From NCBI GenBank assembly GCA_003144015.1, contig QFWS01000002.1, positions 372,001 to 436,000 of the forward strand: a DNA stretch of 64,000 nucleotides. Reading direction: 5' to 3'. Positions 53,701 to 62,457 of the stretch are shown here, piece by piece. Positions within the stretch are counted from its first letter, which is position 1. Each line of letters starts with the position of its first letter. The notes under the pieces were generated by a model. The model ran no database searches. It saw only the letters and a program-made list of their open reading frames with translations, and had not been told where the DNA came from. Source of the stretch: Flavobacteriaceae bacterium LYZ1037 (lineage in GTDB: Bacteria > Bacteroidota > Bacteroidia > Flavobacteriales > Flavobacteriaceae). The translations under genes were made by a program, and so were the position numbers.

Positions 53701-54190
53701 CAGAAGCAGCTTTTAGCATGATTGGATACCCAATAATTTCGGCTTCACTTAAAGCAATATTAATGTCTGTTAAGGATCTTTTGTTACTACGTATTATGGG
53801 AATATTATTAGCTACAGCCACTTCCTTAGCAGTAATTTTATCACCAAGAGACTTTAAAACAGATACTTTTGGACCGACAAATATGATGCCGTTTTCTTCA
53901 CATTTTTTTGCGAACTGGGCATTTTCTGAAAGAAAACCATAGCCAGGATGAATGGCATTTGCTCCACATTTTAAGGCCACTTTAATTATTTCGTCTATGT
54001 CTAAATAGGGCTTTAATGGATCGTTATCTTCACCAATTTGATAAGACTCGTCGGCTTTATACCTGTGTAAAGAATACCTATCTTCAAAGGTGTAAACACC
54101 AACTGTTTTGACATTAATTTCTGTACAGGCTCTAAAAATCCTAATGGCTATTTCTCCTCTGTTGGCTACAAGTACTTTTCCGATTTTCAT
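50738..54190 (-). CDS. pyc: Pyruvate carboxylase
   Basis: The 1150-residue enzyme makes oxaloacetate from pyruvate and bicarbonate. Order: biotin carboxylase (about 1-450: KVLVANRGEIAIRIFRACTE, GGGGRGMRVI, EVNPRIQVEHTVTE), carboxyltransferase (about 530-1000: FTDTTMRDAHQSLLATR, metal and pyruvate site), and biotin carrier (about 1080-1150) with EAMKMETT, biotin on Lys 1116. Length is normal for single-chain enzymes. It is transcribed alone from the minus strand; a palindrome at 54216-54231 sits at its start. Confidence 0.97.
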   Translation of the reverse strand: MKIGKVLVANRGEIAIRIFRACTEINVKTVGVYTFEDRYSLHRYKADESYQIGEDNDPLKPYLDIDEIIKVALKCGANAIHPGYGFLSENAQFAKKCEENGIIFVGPKVSVLKSLGDKITAKEVAVANNIPIIRSNKRSLTDINIALSEAEIIGYPIMLKAASGGGGRGMRVIRKPEELKGAFNESKREALNAFGDDTVFLEKFVENPKHIEIQIVADNFGNTVHLFERDCSVQRRYQKVIEFAPSYDLKQETKVALYQYAIKICKAVDYNNIGTVEFLVDDDDSIYFIEVNPRIQVEHTVTEVVTNIDLVKTQLFIAGGYKLSDQQIKIPNQEAIKVTGYALQCRITTEDPQNEFKPDYGEITTYRSASGFGIRLDAGSVYQGAIVSPFFDSMLVKVTANSRTLDGACRKVRRALAEFRIRGVKTNMLFLDNILKHETFRKGDVTVNFIKQNPDLFVFKAPRNRATKLVTYLGDVIVNGNPDVKKIDTSKTFVKPTVPKFDAQAAFPEGTKDLLTKLGPDKFSQWLKNEKKIHFTDTTMRDAHQSLLATRMRTFDMLKVAEGYAKNNPDIFSMEVWGGATFDVCFRFLQENPWERLQLLRKAMPNVLLQMLIRGSNGVGYTAYPDNLIEKFVEQSWENGVDIFRIFDSLNWMKSIAPCIEHVRNRTQGLAEGSICYTGDILNPKNTKYNLKYYTTLAKDIENAGAHILAIKDMAGLLKPYAAFELISALKQEINIPVHLHTHDTSSIQSATYLKAIEAGVDVVDVALGGLSGLTSQPNFNSVVEMLKFNDRESQLNIDSLNEYSNYWETVRDYYYPFESGLKAGSGEVFKHEIPGGQYSNLKPQAQALGLEDRFHEITKMYGDVNLLFGDIVKVTPSSKVVGDMAQYLVSNNLTVQDVLERGDTISFPQSVVSFFKGDLGQPVGGFPKDLQKLILKDEKPYTDRPNAHLEPIDFESEYKDFKKIFEKDLSRPITITDFLSYKLYPKVFTDSYNKHLKYDNLMNLPTKNFFYGMDIGEEIIVELDKGKTLLITLDSVGKSNEDGMVTVYFKVNGQGRSVQIKDATIKIDKVEHVKADKANSKEIGAPLQGLLSTILVKKGDKVTKNQPLFIIEAMKMETTITATEETTVKQLALKPGVMVNSEDLVIILD

Positions 54191-54302: not shown

Positions 54303-55025
54303 TTAAGCAATATACTTTAGATAATAATTGTGAAGTTCTTCTGCTGAAGCACCAAACCATTTTTTAACATAGATGGCCCAAAAATGATATTGTAATGTCC
54401 AAATACCATGGGTTTCATAACGTCTGGCTGAGGTTATTAGTTTTTTATTAATAACTTTAAATTGCTTACGTTTATAAAGTTCGTTGATAAGAATGTTGTC
54501 TTCATAGATTGCGTAGTTTTCATCAAAGCCACCAATTTCATCAAATAATTTTTTTGTTATAAACTGACTTTGATCGCCACCTCTACAGGCTCTCCAATGA
54601 AACTGGGTTAACCAACTGGCTAAACGTAACCACCAGTGATTGTGACTGAATTGTAATCTGAAGCAACCGGCTAAATGGCCTTTCTCAACTTCATTAATAA
54701 TGTATTGATCAAAGTTTTTAGGAGGGAATGAATCTGCATGTAGAAAGTATAATATAGTTCCTGTAGCTATTTCAGAACCAGTATTCATTTGTAAAGCTCT
54801 ACCTTTTGAACATTCTATGAAACAAAATTTTTGTTGAAAAGATAAATTAGAGTTTTTTTGAAAAAAAGATCTCACAATCTTTTGTGAACCATCAATACTT
54901 CCTCCATCTACAATAATAAGTTCGGCTATGGTTTTTTTTGAAGCATTTTCTAAAACATGATTGAGCAGATGCTCTATGGTTTCTGCTTCATTTAAAATAG
55001 GAATAATGATGGAGATTTTATTCAT
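54303..55025 (-). CDS. Arsenosugar-type GT2 glycosyltransferase (TIGR04283-like)
   Basis: The 240-residue protein has KISIIIPILNEAETI, VDGGSIDGS (acidic motif), CSKGRALQMNTGS, YFLHADSFPP and CRGGDQSQFI ... YEDN, a pattern I associate with the TIGR04283 family that occurs in arsenosugar clusters. It probably adds a sugar or sugar-derived group in late steps. It is the last gene of the minus-strand cluster and overlaps DUF547 by 8 nt. Confidence 0.82.
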   Translation of the reverse strand: MNKISIIIPILNEAETIEHLLNHVLENASKKTIAELIIVDGGSIDGSQKIVRSFFQKNSNLSFQQKFCFIECSKGRALQMNTGSEIATGTILYFLHADSFPPKNFDQYIINEVEKGHLAGCFRLQFSHNHWWLRLASWLTQFHWRACRGGDQSQFITKKLFDEIGGFDENYAIYEDNILINELYKRKQFKVINKKLITSARRYETHGIWTLQYHFWAIYVKKWFGASAEELHNYYLKYIA

Positions 55026-55731
55026 TTAAAGCCCAATTGTAATCTTTAAATCGCTTTTTGGCATTTGGAGAAATTTGGATGTCTGAATATTGATTTAAGA
55101 ATTCAAATAAAGTACCATTTTCGGTAAAGTCTTTTGAAAACCAATCAAATATTTTAGAAATTTCTATATCGTTTTCTGAGATATTATTTCTGTTTTTATC
55201 TGCTAAAAATTCTTTGGTGGCTGTTGTTAATTGAGAATCTAAATTTTTAGCAGTAAAGGCTTTGTTTTGTAATTTAGGACATGAAAATGAAGCACAAACA
55301 ATGGCAAAATGGATGCGAGGTTCATTCATTTTTCTTAAGATTTCATGTTCAATTTCATTTAATGACATAGGAACTTTGCCAATTGAAATAAATTCTTGAT
55401 CCCAAGGTTTTTTAATGTCTTTTATGCTTTTAACAGGGTAATTATTGATAATGAGTTTTATTGTAAACGCATTGTAGGCATTAATCCAATAAGCAAGAGT
55501 TTCGTTTTTAGTCCAAGTATGATCTGGTTTATTTTTTGAAAACTCGTCTAAAATAGTTTGCAACAATTGTTTGTCAGATGTTATGGCTTTGTAGTTAACT
55601 TCTCCATTACTATTGACATGTTTTTGAAGAAAACTATCCCAAGAATTATAATTTACTGTTTGTGCTTTAGCTAATTGTAAAACAGTTGATAAAGTAAATA
55701 TAATAAGTGTCAATAGAGTTCTAGTCTTCAT
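55018..55731 (-). CDS. Secreted DUF547 protein in the arsenosugar cluster
   Basis: The 237-residue protein has a signal peptide (LTLIIFTLSTVLQLAKAQ). DUF547 motifs are visible: LAYWINAYNAFTIKLI, SIKDI, RIHFAIVCASFSCPKL (conserved Cys). The family is common in marine bacteria and resembles papain-like/NlpC-type folds in some predictions, without a proven activity. It is coupled by 11-nt overlap to the desaturase-like gene, pointing to a periplasmic step of the same pathway. Confidence 0.8.
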   Translation of the reverse strand: MKTRTLLTLIIFTLSTVLQLAKAQTVNYNSWDSFLQKHVNSNGEVNYKAITSDKQLLQTILDEFSKNKPDHTWTKNETLAYWINAYNAFTIKLIINNYPVKSIKDIKKPWDQEFISIGKVPMSLNEIEHEILRKMNEPRIHFAIVCASFSCPKLQNKAFTAKNLDSQLTTATKEFLADKNRNNISENDIEISKIFDWFSKDFTENGTLFEFLNQYSDIQISPNAKKRFKDYNWALNE

Positions 55732-56620
55732 TTTTACGTTTAAATTTAATTGGATATAATTCCTGACTTACAAAATCTTTAGGAAAAGATTCATCTCCAG
55801 AAAAGCCCAACTCAATGTCGCGACCATTAGCTGGAATGTAATTTGTTTTGAACAGATAGTCCCAAATACTTAGAGTTAGTCCATAATTTACACCATACCT
55901 TACATGTTTTGGTAGTTCTTTGGCATGATGCCAGATATGCATTTTAGGATTATTAAAAATGTATTTTAATTTTCCATAATCCCAACCCAAGTTTGCATGA
56001 TTTAAATGACCAATAGTAATGTTAAAAAAATGAACAATGGCCACATCTTGAGCTTCAAAACCTCCAATTATTGCCAAGGGAATATACAAGATTGATTTGT
56101 AGACCACAGGTTCCATCCAATGATAACGTAAGTGAGCAGCAAAGCCCATTTCTTTTACAGAATGGTGTACTTTGTGAAAATTCCAAAGTATTGGCACACG
56201 ATGTAAAAGCCTATGTGTGTTCCATTGCACAAAATCTGCCACAATAAAAAAGATAAATAAACCTAAAGGTTTTGGTAGATTATTGACTTCAAATAATTGA
56301 AAGTTGGAAAGCGATAAACCTATAAGTCCTAGAATATCGTTAAAAAACTCGGCTACAGTATTTGAAAGCGCAATTAAAATAATTAGGTTTAATAAAAAAA
56401 AGTTGAAGAACATGTAGAAGGTGTCTAACCAGAAATCTTTTCTAAAAATAGACTGCTCTTCTCTCCATGGAAAAGCAATTTCAAGAATCCACACAAGTAA
56501 TGAAATTATTATTAATCCATAAAAATAATTATCCCAATGATTCACTGTAATTATTTCATTTTTTAAATAATTCCAATAGCCAGAATAAGAATTTAGTATT
56601 ATTTCCAGGTACTTTTCCAT
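55721..56620 (-). CDS. Sterol desaturase / fatty acid hydroxylase family membrane protein
   Basis: The 299-residue protein has four to five membrane helices and the di-iron His clusters HRLLH, HKVHH and WHH (as HRLLHRVPILWNFHKVHH and MHIWHHAKE). Such enzymes hydroxylate or desaturate lipids or sterols with oxygen. Placed between ArsM and DUF547, it may modify a lipid or arsenolipid; that is inference. It overlaps DUF547 by 11 nt. Confidence 0.85.
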   Translation of the reverse strand: MEKYLEIILNSYSGYWNYLKNEIITVNHWDNYFYGLIIISLLVWILEIAFPWREEQSIFRKDFWLDTFYMFFNFFLLNLIILIALSNTVAEFFNDILGLIGLSLSNFQLFEVNNLPKPLGLFIFFIVADFVQWNTHRLLHRVPILWNFHKVHHSVKEMGFAAHLRYHWMEPVVYKSILYIPLAIIGGFEAQDVAIVHFFNITIGHLNHANLGWDYGKLKYIFNNPKMHIWHHAKELPKHVRYGVNYGLTLSIWDYLFKTNYIPANGRDIELGFSGDESFPKDFVSQELYPIKFKRKNED

Positions 56621-56653
56621 GGAGTGTTTTTTAAATATTAAGTTGGTTATAAT

Positions 56654-57622
56654 TTAACAGCATCCACCACCATCATAATGGTACGTAGATTCGCTGAAAT
56701 AAATATCATCTCTACCTAGAGATTTTAGTGCGCTTGCAGTTTTATCACAAATAGCAAGAGGTTGATTTTTTAATAATATATGACCTGCCTGATCATCAAA
56801 ATAATCTTCATCTCCATAATAAATAGCCGCTTTCCCTGTAAACACACATGGTCCATCTTCCGGCATTGGGTCTTTAATGGCTGCGACTTCTATAGATTCA
56901 ATATAGATTAGCTCGTCTGTTGGGTAATTTTTAGGATCTAAAATTCTGTATGGTTTTCTTGCTCTAATTTCAATGGTTCCAAATCCTGCATCTGTTAATG
57001 CTTTTACGTATTCGGCAATTGGTAAACTGCCACTTAAACACAAAGCTCTTAAGCGTTCGTCGTTACGAAGTTCATCATTCATAGGTTGTTCGCAGGTTGG
57101 ATCGCTCATAACCAGTCGGCCATGAGGTTTTAATACACGATACATTTCTGCAATGGCTTGTTTTAAATCATCAGCCTTAAAGATATTGAATAAGCAATTT
57201 TGAGCCGCTACATCAATGCTATTATCTTCAACAGGCAGATGCATTGCATCTCCTTTTTTTAGTTCAACAAAATCAGATTTAAACCACTCGTTTTGAGCTT
57301 CAGCTTCTAAGAAGTTTTTCCGAGAAGCTTCAAGCATTTCATCAACAACATCAATGCCAATAACACCTCCCTTTTGCCTATTAAAATAGGAGAATTGTAA
57401 AAGTTCCATACCACCACCAACACCAACATATAGCATTTTTGGGCTATTGGTTAAATCACGAGCATGTACAGTACTGCCACAGCCGTAATTCATTTCCTGC
57501 ATGATTCTTGGAATTTTTAAACCTGGTAATTCCCAAATAGGATTGGTAGTGCAACACAAACCAACATCTGGTGTTAATGCTGCTTCTTTGTATACATTAT
57601 GTGTGGTGTCTAAGTAGCTCAT
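56654..57622 (-). CDS. arsM: Arsenite S-adenosylmethionine methyltransferase, arsenosugar type
   Basis: The 322-residue protein is a SAM methyltransferase. It starts with a Cys pair (GLCCTT), has the SAM motif YVGVGGGMELLQF and VIGIDVVDEML, DNSIDVAAQNCLFNIF, and a late Cys pair at the very end (GGGCC). ArsM enzymes methylate As(III) to methyl- and dimethylarsenic, the first step of arsenosugar synthesis. The terminal Cys pair is shared by the arsenosugar branch I recall. It lies 3 nt after the phosphorylase gene in the cluster. Confidence 0.85.
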   Translation of the reverse strand: MSYLDTTHNVYKEAALTPDVGLCCTTNPIWELPGLKIPRIMQEMNYGCGSTVHARDLTNSPKMLYVGVGGGMELLQFSYFNRQKGGVIGIDVVDEMLEASRKNFLEAEAQNEWFKSDFVELKKGDAMHLPVEDNSIDVAAQNCLFNIFKADDLKQAIAEMYRVLKPHGRLVMSDPTCEQPMNDELRNDERLRALCLSGSLPIAEYVKALTDAGFGTIEIRARKPYRILDPKNYPTDELIYIESIEVAAIKDPMPEDGPCVFTGKAAIYYGDEDYFDDQAGHILLKNQPLAICDKTASALKSLGRDDIYFSESTYHYDGGGCC

Positions 57623-57625
57623 AAA

Positions 57626-58438
57626 TTATAATGTTTTAATCAACTCTTTAAATAATGTTATCATTTCAGGTTCTGCTTTTCCTGCCATTGCTATAATTTC
57701 ATTAATATTAACAGGTTTTAAATTGTCAGGATCGCATTCGTCAGTTAATACTGATACAGCAGCTGTTTTAAGGTTTAAATGATTGGCTACAATAATTTCG
57801 GGTACCGTACTCATGCCAACTGCATCTGCACCAATAAGTTTAAGCATTCTGTATTCTGCTCTGGTTTCAAGTTGTGGTCCTACTACACTAGCATAAACGC
57901 CTTCGTGTAATGTAATGTTATTAGACTTTGCAATTTGTTTAAAAGCTTGATTTAAACTTTTATTATAAGGTTCACTCATGTCTGTAAAACGTTCGCCTAA
58001 AAGTTCGACGCCTTTAAATGCTAATGGAGAACTTCCTTGTAGATTGATATGGTCTTCAATTAACATAAGTTCCCCTTTTTTGAAACTTTTGTTAATGGCG
58101 CCAGACGCATTAGAAACTAAAAGCGTTTTAATACCTAACTTTTCCATAACACGAACTGGGTAAGTGACATCTTGTAACGTGTAGCCTTCGTAAAGATGAA
58201 AACGCCCTTGCATGACTACTACTTTTTTGCCTTCCAGGTTTCCGTAATAGAGTTTTCCTTTATGAAACTCAACTGTTGCTGTTGGAAAATAAGGAATGTG
58301 ATTGTAACTAACTTCAGCTATAATTTCTATGTCGTTAATTAGTTTTTCTAATCCTGTGCCAAGAATAATGCCGATTTCAGGGTTGATAAATCCTTTCTCT
58401 TCTAAGTATTCTGCTGTTTCTTTAATAAATTTTATCAT
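57626..58438 (-). CDS. Purine nucleoside phosphorylase
   Basis: The 270-residue protein has ILGTGLEKLI, MQGRFHLYEGY, SNASGAINK (phosphate loop), VVGPQLETRAEYRML and DAVGMSTVPEIIVA, typical of the trimeric PNP family. PNP cleaves purine nucleosides with phosphate. In the arsenosugar pathway a dimethylarsinoyl-adenosine intermediate must lose adenine, so this enzyme is a good candidate; the usual salvage role also remains possible. It overlaps the glycosyltransferase gene by 17 nt. Confidence 0.87.
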   Translation of the reverse strand: MIKFIKETAEYLEEKGFINPEIGIILGTGLEKLINDIEIIAEVSYNHIPYFPTATVEFHKGKLYYGNLEGKKVVVMQGRFHLYEGYTLQDVTYPVRVMEKLGIKTLLVSNASGAINKSFKKGELMLIEDHINLQGSSPLAFKGVELLGERFTDMSEPYNKSLNQAFKQIAKSNNITLHEGVYASVVGPQLETRAEYRMLKLIGADAVGMSTVPEIIVANHLNLKTAAVSVLTDECDPDNLKPVNINEIIAMAGKAEPEMITLFKELIKTL

Positions 58439-59105
58439 TGATAATTAGGTCTTTAAGAGTTTTGTTATTGTTAAGATCTTCAAAGGTATCGATATCATTT
58501 AATTCTTCTAAATGATAGACGCTTTCCTGTTGCAAATCTGTTAAAGTGTCTTTTAAAACGGTTGCTGTTCCCCAGGCTTTATTTTCAAAAATATGTGGTT
58601 GAAGCTGTTTCATTCCTAGTAAATAATAACCTCCATCTAAAGCTGGGCCAATTACAACATTGTTTGTTTCTAATTTAAGAAAAGATTCAGAAATATGTTC
58701 TGTTGTTAAGTCTAAAATATCACTTCCAACGATGATAATTTTTTCATAACCTGATTCGAAAAGTTCAATAAAAGCATTTTTCATTTTAATCCCTAAATCT
58801 GAACCTTGTTGTAATTTTTTTATAAAAATGGAGTCACTCCAAATATCATTTTTATGAATGTGTTTCGAGTAAAACACGAACTTATCAGCTGAAATTTTCT
58901 CAGTGATTTTTGCTGTATGTTGTAATAAATACTTGTAGATTTTTAAAGCAGACTCATCTCCAATAGTTTTTGCTAAACGGGTTTTACATTTTCCTAATTC
59001 AGGATTTCTAGCAAAGATAATTATGGCCTTTTTTGACGTTGTAAAATGAAAGTCGAAAGCCATTTCATTATCGCTATTAGTGTCTTTTGTACTTAATACT
59101 CCCAT
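58422..59105 (-). CDS. Arsenosugar-type glycosyltransferase (TIGR04282/DUF2064-like)
   Basis: The 227-residue protein has IFARNPELGKCKTRLAKTIGDE, VGSDILDLT and PALDGGYYLLGM, as in the TIGR04282 (DUF2064) group of nucleotidyl- or glycosyltransferases. It often occurs with TIGR04283 proteins. It could prepare or transfer the sugar unit. It overlaps PNP by 17 nt and follows the rhodanese gene by 12 nt. Confidence 0.82.
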   Translation of the reverse strand: MGVLSTKDTNSDNEMAFDFHFTTSKKAIIIFARNPELGKCKTRLAKTIGDESALKIYKYLLQHTAKITEKISADKFVFYSKHIHKNDIWSDSIFIKKLQQGSDLGIKMKNAFIELFESGYEKIIIVGSDILDLTTEHISESFLKLETNNVVIGPALDGGYYLLGMKQLQPHIFENKAWGTATVLKDTLTDLQQESVYHLEELNDIDTFEDLNNNKTLKDLIINDKIY

Positions 59106-59117
59106 GCTTAAAAATAG

Positions 59118-59612
59118 TTAATTATAGACTTTCTGTCCAGATGTAAGCCATTTATCCCATTGTGGTAAAAAGACATGAATTTTTTCAGTTTTTGTTTCGT
59201 AGAAGTCGTATACGTCAAAACCTTTGTTTTTCCATTCAAAAATACCTCCATATAAATTATAGACGTTTGTATATCCAGATTTTTTTAATTTTTCAGCAAT
59301 TTTATCTGAACGAATTCCTAAAGTACAATACACAACTATTTGTTGCTGTTTGTTGTTTAGTTGAGATGCTGTTTGTTGTAAATTAAATTCATTATAGCCT
59401 ACAGGAATGGCATCTTTAATATGACTTACCTGATACTCTTCAAATTCGCGAGCATCTAAAATAATGGCTTGTGTTTTAGGCATGGCTAATTCTTCTACTG
59501 AGATATAAGGGATATGATGATTGTTATGTGACTTTAATAATTCCGAAAGTGATTCCTGGGAGAAACTAATACATGGGATTAAAATAAGTATGGTTAAAAA
59601 TAATTGTTTCAT
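59118..59612 (-). CDS. Secreted rhodanese-like protein
   Basis: The 164-residue protein starts with a signal peptide (LFLTILILIPCISFSQ); I use ATG 59612, since the ATG at 59684 overlaps the upstream arsS by 71 nt. The rhodanese domain has ILDAREFEEYQVSHIKDAIP and the active-site loop VVYCTLGIRSDKIA with catalytic Cys, then NVYNLYGGIFEWKNKG. It transfers sulfur or binds arsenate-like anions; its presence fits thiol-arsenic chemistry, which is inference. Confidence 0.82.
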   Translation of the reverse strand: MKQLFLTILILIPCISFSQESLSELLKSHNNHHIPYISVEELAMPKTQAIILDAREFEEYQVSHIKDAIPVGYNEFNLQQTASQLNNKQQQIVVYCTLGIRSDKIAEKLKKSGYTNVYNLYGGIFEWKNKGFDVYDFYETKTEKIHVFLPQWDKWLTSGQKVYN

Positions 59613-59613
59613 A

Positions 59614-60669
59614 TTAAATAATATTTCCTTGACAGCTACTTCCTGCTCCAGCTGTACAGCCATAACAATGTTGTGAAATAACAATATCTCGTCCTTCTAA
59701 TAATTCTTCATTATACTCAGAGATATGTTTTGATTTGCTATTTACAGGTAATTCAAGCATCTGGTTAAAATCGCAGTCAAACAAATAGCCGTCCCAACTA
59801 ATGGATAAGGTGTTTGTGCACATAACATTAGAAACAGCAGCAGGATTATAAGCTTCAACCAGAGAGTACATATAATCTTCGTAATTTTCTGATGCTATTA
59901 AATAGTCTAAAAATCGTGCAATAGGTAAATTTGTTATGGCGAATAAATTATGAAATTGAATGCCAAAATCTTCAAGTAATGCTTTTTTAAAGTCTTTTTC
60001 TAATGCAGTTTGATCTCCTGGTAAAAAGGCTCCTGAAGGATTGTAGACCAAGTCTAATTTTAAGTTATTTCCTGGCATACCATAGCCAATAGCATTTAAA
60101 TCCTGTAAGGCTTTAATTGATTTGTCAAAAACACCATCACCTCTTTGTTTGTCTGTTTTTCCTTTAGTCCAGTGTGGCATGGAGGAAATCACATGAACCT
60201 TGTGTTTTTCAAAAAACTCTGGTAAATCGTGATACTTTTTATTGGCTCTGATAATGGTTAAGTTAGATCGAACTATAAAATCTTTAATACCAACTTTAGC
60301 AGCTTCTTCGACAAACCATCTAAAATCTGGATTCATTTCAGGAGCGCCACCTGTTAAATCTAAAGTATGTGCACCAGATTTTTTAATAACCTCAAGACAT
60401 TGTTTCATGGTGTCTCTGGTCATAATTTCTTTTCTGTCTGGACCAGCATCTACATGGCAATGATCGCAAACTTGATTACACATATAACCAACATTGATTT
60501 GTAATATTTCTAATTTTTTTGCTTTAAGAGGAAATTGATTTGTTTTTGAAATTTTGTCTTTAAACGTAGGTAGTTCACCATTTTTAAAAATACCGTTTGA
60601 GAGGATTTCTAATTGCCTATTGCTTTGCGCTAAATCGCTTCCTAGTTTTTTTAAGGACTTTGTTGCCAT
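59614..60669 (-). CDS. arsS: Arsenosugar radical SAM protein ArsS
   Basis: The 351-residue protein has the radical SAM motif MCNQVCDHCHVDAGP with Cys 64, 68 and 71 and a C-terminal Cys-rich end (HCYGCTAGAGSSCQG), which may bind a second cluster. Work in cyanobacteria identified ArsS as the enzyme joining dimethylarsinous acid to a 5'-deoxyadenosyl group, after ArsM. It leads the operon after the AhpD-like gene, with a 58-nt gap. Confidence 0.9.
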   Translation of the reverse strand: MATKSLKKLGSDLAQSNRQLEILSNGIFKNGELPTFKDKISKTNQFPLKAKKLEILQINVGYMCNQVCDHCHVDAGPDRKEIMTRDTMKQCLEVIKKSGAHTLDLTGGAPEMNPDFRWFVEEAAKVGIKDFIVRSNLTIIRANKKYHDLPEFFEKHKVHVISSMPHWTKGKTDKQRGDGVFDKSIKALQDLNAIGYGMPGNNLKLDLVYNPSGAFLPGDQTALEKDFKKALLEDFGIQFHNLFAITNLPIARFLDYLIASENYEDYMYSLVEAYNPAAVSNVMCTNTLSISWDGYLFDCDFNQMLELPVNSKSKHISEYNEELLEGRDIVISQHCYGCTAGAGSSCQGNII

Positions 60670-60727
60670 TATTTATGGGGTCTTATTTAATATGCTTACG
60701 AAATTAATGAAGAAAAGGTTTTAAGTT

Positions 60728-61063
60728 TTAACCGTCTAATTTATTAACTTTATTCATCATTTGTACACCATGCACTAAAGATGCACCACCACGTATGGCA
60801 GCCGCTACATGTAGAGCTTCTATCATTTCTTCTTTAGTTATGCCACGTTGTAATCCATCACCAGTATAAGCATCTATACAATATGGGCATTGAATGGTGT
60901 GTGCTACTGCTAACGCTATTAACGATTTTTCGCGTTCAGAAAGTTTTCCTTCCTTAAAAACAGAGTTGTAATAGTCGAAGAATTTAGAACCAAGTTCTTC
61001 GTTCCATTCTGATATTTTACCAAATTTTTTAAGATCTGCTGGATCGTAATATGTTTTTTGCAT
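60728..61063 (-). CDS. AhpD/CMD-like arsenosugar-associated peroxidase-like protein
   Basis: The 111-residue protein has the carboxymuconolactone-decarboxylase fold with the redox motif CPYCIDAYTGDGLQRG (CxxC) and HVAAAIRGGASLVHG. It corresponds to the arsenosugar-associated peroxidase-like family I recall. It could reduce an arsenic or peroxide intermediate. It is the first gene of the minus-strand cluster; a near-match -7 (TATATTTC, 61099-61092) lies upstream. Confidence 0.85.
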   Translation of the reverse strand: MQKTYYDPADLKKFGKISEWNEELGSKFFDYYNSVFKEGKLSEREKSLIALAVAHTIQCPYCIDAYTGDGLQRGITKEEMIEALHVAAAIRGGASLVHGVQMMNKVNKLDG

Positions 61064-61206: not shown

Positions 61207-62457
61207 ATGGATTACTTTAATATTATTGCTATTCTAATAGTTATGTCGGCTATTTTTGGATATGTTAATGTGCGCTTTTTAAAGCTTCCAAATACGATTG
61301 GTTTAATGATGATAACCATCGTTTTTACCTTAGTCGTATTTGTTTTAAATTATTTTGGCTCACCAGCATTGCTAGAAGCCGAAAAGTTAATCATCACACA
61401 AATAGATTTCAAGGAAGTACTTTTAGATGTTATGTTGAGTTTTATGCTATTTGCTGGTGCTTTGCATACTAATTTCGAACAATTACGAGTTCAACGTTGG
61501 CCAGTATTAGTATTCGCAACATTAGGTGTTTTAGCTTCAACTTTTTTAGTTGGTTTTGGTATTTATTTCATTCTACCTCTGTTAGGTTTGAATGTTGAAT
61601 TAATTTATTGTCTGTTATTTGGTGCACTTATTTCGCCAACTGATCCGATAGCTGTTTTGGGTATCTTGAAAAATGTTGGAGCACCTAAGCAATTAGAGGC
61701 CAAAATTGTTGGAGAATCCTTATTTAATGACGGTGTTGGTGTTGTCGTGTTTTTAACCATTTTTAAAATTGCACAAATAGGGACTGGTGACATTGAAGTT
61801 TCTGCCATTTTTGAGCTTTTTGCCGTTGAGGTTATTGGAGGTATTGTTCTAGGTCTCGTTATTGGTTGGATTACGTATCGCTTAATGAAATCTATTGATG
61901 ATTATGATATTGAAGTTATTATTACTTTAGCAGCAGTTATGGGAGGAACCGTTATTGCACAAACGTATCATTTATCAGCACCTTTAGCAATGGTTACTGC
62001 AGGCTTACTTATAGGAAATGATACCATTAGAAATTCTTCTATGTCTCATATAACTGAAAGTTATGTCGATAAATTTTGGGAACTCTTAGACATATTATTA
62101 AATACTATTTTGTTTGTGCTTATAGGGATGGAAATTTTGGTATTGACGTTTGAAGCAAATTATATGTTTGCTGGTATCGTTGCAATACCTTTAGTGTTGT
62201 TATGTCGTTATTTGTCATTATTAATACCAGTAAAGTTTTTTGAAAAACGATTGGATTTTGCGCCAAAAACAAATTTGATTATGACCTGGGGAGGCTTGCG
62301 TGGAGGCATATCTATAGCGTTAGCCTTGGGGTTAACTATGGACATGGAACGCGATTTGTTTTTGGTAATTACCTATTTTATTGTTGTTTTCTCTATTGTA
62401 GTTCAAGGATTGTCACTTGGTAAATTGGTGAAACGTTATGCTCCAACTCCAAATTAG
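61207..62457 (+). CDS. Na+/H+ antiporter (CPA1/NhaP-type)
   Basis: The 416-residue protein has about twelve membrane helices and the family's hallmarks LLFGALISPTDPIAVLGIL (the Asp in TDP), VGESLFNDGVGVVVFL (the Asp of ND), TWGGLRGGISIALALG and an early FAGALH. It exchanges Na+ or K+ for H+. No large cytosolic tail is present, as usual in bacteria. It diverges from the arsenosugar cluster. Confidence 0.92.
   Translation: MDYFNIIAILIVMSAIFGYVNVRFLKLPNTIGLMMITIVFTLVVFVLNYFGSPALLEAEKLIITQIDFKEVLLDVMLSFMLFAGALHTNFEQLRVQRWPVLVFATLGVLASTFLVGFGIYFILPLLGLNVELIYCLLFGALISPTDPIAVLGILKNVGAPKQLEAKIVGESLFNDGVGVVVFLTIFKIAQIGTGDIEVSAIFELFAVEVIGGIVLGLVIGWITYRLMKSIDDYDIEVIITLAAVMGGTVIAQTYHLSAPLAMVTAGLLIGNDTIRNSSMSHITESYVDKFWELLDILLNTILFVLIGMEILVLTFEANYMFAGIVAIPLVLLCRYLSLLIPVKFFEKRLDFAPKTNLIMTWGGLRGGISIALALGLTMDMERDLFLVITYFIVVFSIVVQGLSLGKLVKRYAPTPN

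What the first reader, a model, noticed from the sequence alone, without database searches (positions are those of the whole stretch)
54303..61063. Nine-gene arsenosugar cluster with lipid-type and periplasmic extras
ArsM, ArsS, nucleoside phosphorylase, two glycosyltransferases and an AhpD-like protein form the recognisable core, overlapping or within 60 nt of one another. Interleaved are a di-iron sterol-desaturase-type enzyme, a secreted DUF547 protein and a secreted rhodanese. This points to a pathway that goes past soluble arsenosugars to a membrane-associated or exported arsenolipid.
Basis: partly seen in the sequence, partly recalled or inferred. Interest (0 to 1): 0.75.

Follow-up and report, generated by a model that had tools for sequence, protein, structure and literature searches.

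The report
Flavobacterial arsenic-sugar operon with membrane enzymes
This is a nine-gene bacterial operon for building sugar molecules that carry arsenic; a membrane oxygenase and exported proteins are regular members of it in many related marine bacteria, but nothing yet shows that the end product is an arsenic-containing fat.

Summary
Nine genes lie on one strand (61063 down to 54303) with gaps of at most 58 nt or small overlaps. Curated models name ArsM, ArsS, both glycosyltransferase-type proteins and the AhpD-like protein as arsenosugar genes. The sterol-desaturase-type enzyme (FAH) and DUF547 protein have no such label, yet they belong: among 80 named loci with a close FAH, ArsS was found in all 79 that could be checked; FAH adjoins DUF547 in 72 of 80 and DUF547 adjoins TIGR04283 in 72 of 80. 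In 99 genomes FAH tracks ArsS (38 both, 2 and 6 alone, 53 neither), also when unlinked. The arsenolipid is not shown: no lipid-assembly gene is in the operon, and unlinked FAH relatives often lie near sulfite-dehydrogenase-like genes. Unexpectedly, some relatives carry a SusC/SusD/symporter/phosphatase block with the operon; 15 of 21 of those lack any ArsM found, against 2 of 59 without the block. This suggests import of ready-methylated arsenic. New variant of a known kind.

The parts
60728..61063 (-). AhpD/CMD-family protein, TIGR04169 arsenosugar biosynthesis-associated peroxidase-like protein; first gene of the operon
   Evidence: 190.6 bits, cut-off 120; PF02627; present in 39 of 40 ArsS-centred loci
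59614..60669 (-). ArsS, radical SAM enzyme (TIGR04167; C-x3-C-x2-C visible in the sequence)
   Evidence: 443.2 bits, cut-off 300; over cut-off in 40 of 99 genomes searched, this one included
59118..59612 (-). exported rhodanese (signal peptide by eye), NF045521, active-site loop CTLGIRS
   Evidence: 200.1 bits, cut-off 145; the loop C-[ST]-[LIV]-G-[IV]-R-S is found in 26 of 27 orthologues
58422..59105 (-). TIGR04282 CofC-like protein (DUF2064), probable sugar-1-phosphate nucleotidyltransferase or glycosyltransferase
   Evidence: 211.2 bits, cut-off 134; PF09837, weaker CofC match; PDB 3cgx
57626..58438 (-). purine-nucleoside phosphorylase (PNP)
   Evidence: NF006054 339.3 bits, cut-off 218
56654..57622 (-). 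ArsM, arsenosugar-type arsenite methyltransferase (NF038099)
   Evidence: 573.5 bits, cut-off 400
55721..56620 (-). FAH: membrane di-iron hydroxylase of the fatty-acid hydroxylase/sterol desaturase superfamily; the only homologue in this genome at E<=1e-10
   Evidence: PF04116 94.3 bits; invariant H136, H140, H149, H152, H153, H167, H205, H208, H228, H231, H232 over 35 sequences; one match in the genome
55018..55731 (-). exported DUF547 protein (signal peptide by eye); the only DUF547 found in this genome
   Evidence: PF04784 106.8 bits; one match in the genome at E<=0.001; lipobox in 11 of 28 homologues by a simple pattern, not in this one; C146, C151, H141 invariant over 27 sequences
54303..55025 (-). 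TIGR04283 family-2 glycosyltransferase; last gene of the operon
   Evidence: 229.9 bits, cut-off 182; next to DUF547 in 72 of 80 FAH-centred loci

Best explanation
A conserved Flavobacteriaceae arsenoriboside (arsenosugar) biosynthesis operon with a built-in membrane and envelope stage. Shown by sequence: nine co-directional genes of named families, recurrent as a unit. Established for homologues (recalled; partly in review passages and reference titles): ArsM methylates arsenite to dimethylarsenic, and the radical SAM enzyme ArsS adenosylates it. Inferred: PNP swaps adenine for phosphate to give dimethylarsinoyl-ribose-1-phosphate. The CofC-like TIGR04282 protein activates that to a nucleotide sugar. 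TIGR04283 transfers the arsenoribose to an acceptor at the inner face of the membrane. FAH, a membrane di-iron oxygenase, oxidises the acceptor or the glycoside in the bilayer. DUF547, exported or lipid-anchored, and the exported rhodanese act on the product in the periplasm. The AhpD-like protein probably protects or reduces trivalent-arsenic intermediates. I put a membrane or envelope stage at about 0.55 and a true arsenolipid end product at about 0.3.
For: Curated family hits over cut-off for 7 of 9 genes and Pfam for the other two. All nine genes are seen in 37 of 80 FAH-centred loci although these are cut at 10 kb or at contig ends. Close FAH occurs with ArsS in 79 of 79 checkable cases of 80. 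In 99 genomes FAH of at least 50% identity tracks ArsS: 38 both, 2 ArsS only, 6 FAH only, 53 neither; leaving out genomes with the close FAH it is 18/2/6/53. TIGR04283 genomes all have a DUF547 (35 of 35). FAH has 11 invariant histidines, and its model best matches Scs7p, a sphingolipid fatty-acid hydroxylase (function recalled; Z 5.9, rmsd 5.3, 174 aligned; next unrelated row Z 2.8). Arsenic specificity: 9 of the 13 ArsS+ genomes without the operon-type ArsM carry canonical ArsM elsewhere, against 2 of 27 with it and 3 of 59 without ArsS. In-operon FAH forms essentially one branch, needing 2 label changes against 17.1 in shuffles.
Against: No chemistry. No acyl-, phosphatidyl- or CDP-alcohol transferase lies in the operon, so a lipid acceptor is a guess. 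Of 20 unlinked FAH loci, 11 hold a SorA-like gene, 10 a small CxxCH protein and 5 an MBL-rhodanese gene. G008 (listed as 100% complete), G025 (only ArsS fragments, one with a stop) and G044 keep part of the downstream module without ArsS over cut-off or ArsM. G058, G072 and G082 have FAH and DUF547 without ArsS. Four ArsS+ genomes of 40 (G007, G051, G052, G056) have neither type of ArsM. Co-occurrence counts are not corrected for phylogeny. Foldseek gave no confident hit for FAH or DUF547, and Z 5.9 is a middling score by the tool's own note.
Confidence: 0.6

Rival explanations
1. One reading: FAH and DUF547 build or export an arsenic-bearing lipid, for instance an arsenosugar phospholipid or a hydroxylated arsenoribose lipid.
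For: FAH is of a membrane di-iron hydroxylase superfamily; the one curated model it matches is the lipid hydroxylase OlsE (90.7 bits, far below the cut-off of 475), and the best structural match is Scs7p. DUF547 has a signal peptide by eye and a lipobox in 11 of 28 homologues. Arsenosugar phospholipids are reported from a cyanobacterium (passage).
Against: No lipid-assembly gene in the operon; OlsE membership not met; FAH relatives also lie in sulfur-gene contexts; FAH is absent from 2 of 40 ArsS+ genomes.
Confidence: 0.3
2. Only water-soluble arsenosugars are made. FAH, rhodanese and DUF547 serve a co-regulated neighbouring function, such as sulfur or oxygen-stress handling or envelope repair, needed in the same growth conditions.
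For: Unlinked FAH relatives lie near SorA-like, CxxCH and MBL-rhodanese genes; rhodanese is a sulfur-transfer fold; three genomes keep rhodanese-TIGR04282-PNP-(DUF547)-TIGR04283 without ArsS over cut-off.
Against: Close FAH was found in no examined genome without ArsS (79 of 79), and FAH tracks ArsS even when unlinked. FAH-DUF547 and DUF547-TIGR04283 overlap by 11 and 8 nt, which favours one pathway.
Confidence: 0.3
3. The module is a general salvage route for 5'-deoxy-nucleosides made by radical SAM enzymes; arsenic is one substrate among others.
For: PNP, CofC-like and GT2 proteins kept without ArsS over cut-off and without ArsM in G008, G025 and G044.
Against: G025 carries ArsS fragments and G044 is in about 320 contigs, so recent loss or a missing piece is likely there; the exchange of ArsM types points to methylated arsenic as the substrate.
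Confidence: 0.1

Closest known systems
Arsenosugar biosynthesis genes of bacteria as curated in NCBIfam (ArsM NF038099, ArsS TIGR04167, TIGR04282, TIGR04283, TIGR04169)
   Same: All five families over cut-off, in one operon
   Different: FAH and DUF547 carry no arsenosugar label in the two libraries searched, yet are standing operon members in many Flavobacteriaceae
Fatty-acid hydroxylase superfamily (PF04116: sterol desaturase, Scs7p, OlsE)
   Same: Domain over cut-off and 11 invariant histidines, uncertain structural match to Scs7p
   Different: Not OlsE (90.7 of 475 bits); substrate unknown; the in-operon form makes its own branch among flavobacterial relatives
NF045521 rhodanese homology protein ('rhoda_near_glyco')
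   Same: 200.1 bits, cut-off 145; conserved active-site loop
   Different: No difference found; an ordinary member
SusC/SusD nutrient uptake systems of Bacteroidota
   Same: In relatives, a SusC (TIGR04056), SusD (PF12771), sodium:solute symporter (weak PF00474) and metallophosphatase (PF12850) block lies with the operon (one representative of each was scanned)
   Different: Set among arsenic genes; absent from this operon

Membership tests
Arsenosugar biosynthesis cluster | arsenosugar-type ArsM, ArsS and the associated TIGR04282, TIGR04283, TIGR04169 families together | tested here: met
   all over curated cut-off within 6.8 kb
Arsenosugar biosynthesis cluster | arsenoriboside is made | not testable with these tools
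   needs LC-ICP-MS/ESI-MS
Arsenolipid pathway | arsenic in a lipid that depends on these genes | not testable with these tools
   no chemistry; no lipid-assembly gene among the nine
Fatty-acid hydroxylase superfamily PF04116 | domain score over gathering cut-off | tested here: met
   94.3 against 31 bits
Fatty-acid hydroxylase superfamily PF04116 | conserved di-iron histidine clusters (HX3H, HX2HH, HX2HH; motif recalled) | tested here: met
   11 invariant histidines, in those spacings, in 35 sequences
Fatty-acid hydroxylase superfamily PF04116 | Scs7p-like fold | tested here: inconclusive
   4zr0_B Z 5.9, rmsd 5.3, 174 aligned, next unrelated row Z 2.8; nothing confident by Foldseek
Ornithine lipid hydroxylase OlsE (NF052566) | score over cut-off | tested here: not met
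   90.7 against 475 bits
DUF547 (PF04784) | domain score over gathering cut-off | tested here: met
   106.8 against 27 bits
DUF547 (PF04784) | known fold and activity | tested here: inconclusive
   model pLDDT 91.9 without a confident solved match
Rhodanese NF045521 | score over cut-off and catalytic loop | tested here: met
   200.1 against 145 bits; loop in 26 of 27

The most novel reading that the evidence does not exclude
Flavobacteriaceae feed this operon in two interchangeable ways: by methylating arsenic themselves with ArsM, or by importing ready-methylated arsenic compounds (for instance algal dimethylarsenic or arsenosugar phosphates) through a SusC/SusD pair, a sodium symporter and a phosphatase encoded with the operon. 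They then pass the arsenoribose to a membrane stage with FAH, TIGR04283 and DUF547. Marine bacteria would thus be scavengers and remodellers of algal organoarsenic.
Probability: 0.3. Interest if true: 0.75.

Novelty: new variant of a known kind. Interest (0 to 1): 0.5.

Why it matters
How arsenosugars become arsenolipids, and who makes and recycles them in the sea, are to my knowledge open questions. This gives a definite gene set in named, mostly marine bacteria (Xanthomarina, Bizionia, Winogradskyella, Algibacter and others). It names the two unlabelled genes to delete first (FAH, DUF547) and points to an uptake block as a possible alternative to methylation. If the extras prove unrelated to lipid, the same deletions still give a first function to this DUF547 protein and this membrane oxygenase branch.

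Tried and rejected
Sequence search of solved structures with DUF547 and FAH profiles gave only chance matches (best E 0.055 and 0.25). Foldseek with both models gave nothing at E <= 0.001. The DUF547 second look gave a designed nanocage at Z 5.1 and 14-3-3 rows at Z about 4.5, so no fold is claimed. ArsS had no solved relative at E <= 0.001.

PNP specificity: I looked for an adenine-type signature. The cluster PNP reads T-D where human PNP (recalled) has T-N, but the solved bacterial PNPs 4lna, 8swt and 4m1e also read T-D, so it is not diagnostic and I dropped it. A pattern check of TIGR04282 motifs was badly set, mixed in a second, shorter paralogue, and was dropped.

Promoter scan: 38 sites against 35.1 expected; terminator-like sites 6 against 3.3; both uninformative.

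Idea rejected: that loss of the operon-type ArsM in the same genus means the operon is not for arsenic. Five of those six genomes carry canonical ArsM elsewhere; G007 has neither type.

Left out before counting: alignment A1 used 15 of the 18 in-operon FAH found in the 40 loci, and A2 used 27 of 28 DUF547 sequences, two of them of a second type. Unlinked FAH neighbourhoods were fetched for 20 of 24 genomes (G009, G013, G026, G051 not). Only one representative of each neighbour family was scanned.

Literature: (at least 3 of arsenosugar, ArsS, glycosyltransferase, ArsM) found 0 papers; two searches were too broad (45,700 and 13,325; one listed each); one search found 8, 9, 1. One search (DUF547) found 21, of which the 15 listed are nearly all on plants. 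One search (two of arsenosugar, SusD, TonB-dependent, Bacteroidetes) found 723; the 5 listed do not mention arsenosugar. I saw no paper linking FAH, DUF547 or SusCD to arsenosugars in these listings, which cover an open-licence library only. Papers seen: PMC12159101, PMC11009773, PMC8787705 by passages only; PMC6467767 not held.


Full report
What is there. The window holds nine minus-strand genes from 61063 to 54303 with gaps of at most 58 nt and three overlaps. Upstream, a sodium/proton-antiporter-type gene starts divergently at 61207; downstream, a pyruvate-carboxylase-type gene on the same strand starts at 54190 (both named by eye from the translations). NCBIfam names, over curated cut-offs: TIGR04169 (AhpD-like), TIGR04167 (ArsS), NF045521 (rhodanese), TIGR04282, NF006054 (purine-nucleoside phosphorylase), NF038099 (arsenosugar ArsM) and TIGR04283. 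Pfam names the other two: PF04116 FA_hydroxylase (FAH here) and PF04784 DUF547. FAH and DUF547 each gave one match in this genome (E <= 1e-10 and E <= 0.001). The nearest named relatives by FAH include Xanthomarina gelatinilytica, Xanthomarina sp. and Bizionia arctica (88-89%), so the window comes from that corner of Flavobacteriaceae.

Are the extras real members? Of 99 genomes (this one and 98 relatives), 40 have ArsS over cut-off. Around those 40 ArsS genes (window plus 39 regions of 12-20 kb) the regions hold AhpD-like in 39, TIGR04282 38, PNP 33, rhodanese 27, DUF547 26, TIGR04283 23, ArsM 20 and FAH 18; some regions end at a contig end or before the operon does, so these are lower bounds (e.g. 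G043 and G045 have FAH just outside). FAH->DUF547 are neighbours (within 600 nt, same strand) in 72 of 80, DUF547->TIGR04283 (within 300 nt) in 72 of 80, and all nine genes are seen in 37 of 80. ArsS is inside 62 of the 80 loci. Of the other 18, the 8 genomes searched and the 9 searched all have ArsS over cut-off; those 9 lie within about 5 kb outside the locus if the contigs are the same. L138 was not held. That is 79 of 79 checkable.

Does FAH follow ArsS when it is not in the operon? In the 99 genomes, FAH homologues fall into two sets: 20 genomes at 67-100% identity and 24 at 50-62%. FAH of either set against ArsS: 38 both, 2 ArsS only (G027, G042), 6 FAH only (G008, G025, G044, G058, G072, G082), 53 neither. 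Restricted to the family (60 genomes): 37, 2, 4, 17. Leaving out genomes with the close FAH: 18, 2, 6, 53. Fisher values are small (1.3e-18, 2.2e-9, 7.6e-11) but treat related genomes as independent, so I use them as description only. A quick tree of 61 FAH sequences (15 in-operon and 20 unlinked rows of alignment A1, plus 26 obtained from a 1-in-3 sample of 27 of the 80 loci) puts the in-operon ones in essentially one branch (2 label changes, 17.1 in shuffles); one unlinked row (L072, a long branch) falls beside the most divergent in-operon one. I labelled L154 and L166 'operon' although their FAH lies away from ArsS. Reading: one recruitment into the operon, with later relocations.

Evidence that cuts the other way. 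In 20 unlinked FAH loci (20 of 24 such genomes), 11 hold a SorA/SoxC-like molybdoenzyme within a gene or two of FAH, 10 a small protein with a CxxCH motif, and 5 an MBL-rhodanese protein, adjacent to FAH in 3. One representative of each was scanned: the first matches SorA at 224 bits (cut-off 600) with PF00174 and PF03404; the second matches nothing and is called cytochrome-c-like by eye; the third has PF00753 and PF00581, a combination I recall from persulfide dioxygenases. So the ancestral FAH may belong to sulfur metabolism. Also, G008, G025 and G044 keep rhodanese-TIGR04282-PNP-(DUF547)-TIGR04283 with no ArsS over cut-off and no ArsM of either type. G025 has ArsS fragments, one with a stop, and G044 is in about 320 contigs, so only G008 (listed as 100% complete) is a clean case.

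Is the operon really about arsenic? The operon-type ArsM is missing in 13 of the 40 ArsS+ genomes, including six same-genus relatives whose operon is otherwise whole. Of those 13, 9 carry canonical ArsM (NF008823) elsewhere, against 2 of the 27 that have the operon type and 3 of the 59 without ArsS; the other four of the 13 (G007, G051, G052, G056) have neither. Replacement of one methyltransferase type by another argues that methylated arsenic is the true substrate.

An unexpected block. In 6 of 40 ArsS-centred and 18 of 80 FAH-centred loci a SusC, SusD, sodium:solute symporter and metallophosphatase lie with the operon, usually between ArsS (with an extra, shorter TIGR04282-like gene) and the rhodanese. 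Three more of the 80 (L101, L141, L158) have it at a separately fetched ArsS locus, making 21. Of the 80, 50 have ArsM in the locus; the 30 without were searched genome-wide: 6 have operon-type ArsM elsewhere, 7 canonical, 17 none; in the same search all 15 control genomes with ArsM in the locus matched. Fifteen of those 17 are among the 21 with the block; 2 (L108, L121) are among the 59 others (Fisher about 1e-9, same caveat on relatedness). Of the 21, 6 do have an ArsM (L123, L141, L144, L149, L162; canonical in L160). Caveats: absence of the block was judged from loci cut at 10 kb, so a distant block would be missed; a stretch beside ArsS in L118 was not seen; completeness of these named genomes was not told. 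Among the 40, G051 and G056 have the block and no ArsM, but G017, G019, G043 and G045 have both, so the block does not exclude ArsM; and G007, G052, L108 and L121 lack ArsM with no block seen. The natural reading is import of ready-methylated arsenic; the substrate is a guess.

Mechanism. For homologues: ArsM supplies dimethylarsenic (a reference title) and a radical SAM enzyme adenosylates arsenic (review passage); primary papers were not read. Inferred: PNP, TIGR04282 and TIGR04283 act in series as phosphorolysis, activation and transfer. FAH has 11 invariant histidines in the spacing of the di-iron superfamily and an uncertain structural likeness to Scs7p. DUF547 has a signal peptide by eye; a lipobox pattern is found in 11 of 28 homologues, not in this one; C146, C151 and H141 are invariant and could be catalytic. 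Hence I favour a membrane and envelope stage, without claiming a lipid.

Verdict. Most of the operon is already named in public family libraries; what this analysis adds is the standing membership of FAH and DUF547 and the ArsM-or-uptake pattern.

Noticed in passing
L095, L104, L112, L113, L131, L133, L136, L137, L140, L152, L157, L167, L170; L171 9405-16390; L172: SusC-SusD-sodium symporter-metallophosphatase block with the operon of relatives; 15 of 21 block-bearing genomes gave no ArsM, against 2 of 59 others.
   Followed up: partly
L077-L081, L084-L086, L088-L090: FAH relatives outside the operon lie within a gene or two of a SorA/SoxC-like molybdoenzyme, mostly with a small CxxCH protein; others near an MBL-rhodanese protein.
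   Followed up: partly
L179 13867-16970 onward (G008), L180 (G025), L182 (G044): Rhodanese-TIGR04282-PNP-(DUF547)-TIGR04283 kept without ArsS over cut-off or ArsM; G025 has ArsS fragments elsewhere.
   Followed up: partly
L044 164-877, L050 29-742 and others: A second, distinct DUF547 gene on the opposite strand lies a few kb beyond the operon in many relatives.
   Followed up: no
L062 11682-12392; same family in L035, L038, L045, L056: A protein with a DM13 domain and a Por secretion tail (scanned in L062 only) lies after TIGR04282 in some relatives.
   Followed up: no
L171 8512-9192: A second, shorter TIGR04282-like gene stands directly after ArsS in most loci where the SusC/SusD block follows, and sometimes without it (L096, L106); by eye it lacks the G-K-x-K-T-R-L stretch.
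   Followed up: no
G000-G007 (same genus): Within one genus the operon-type ArsM is kept in 2 of 8 genomes, canonical ArsM is found instead in 5, and G007 has neither.
   Followed up: yes
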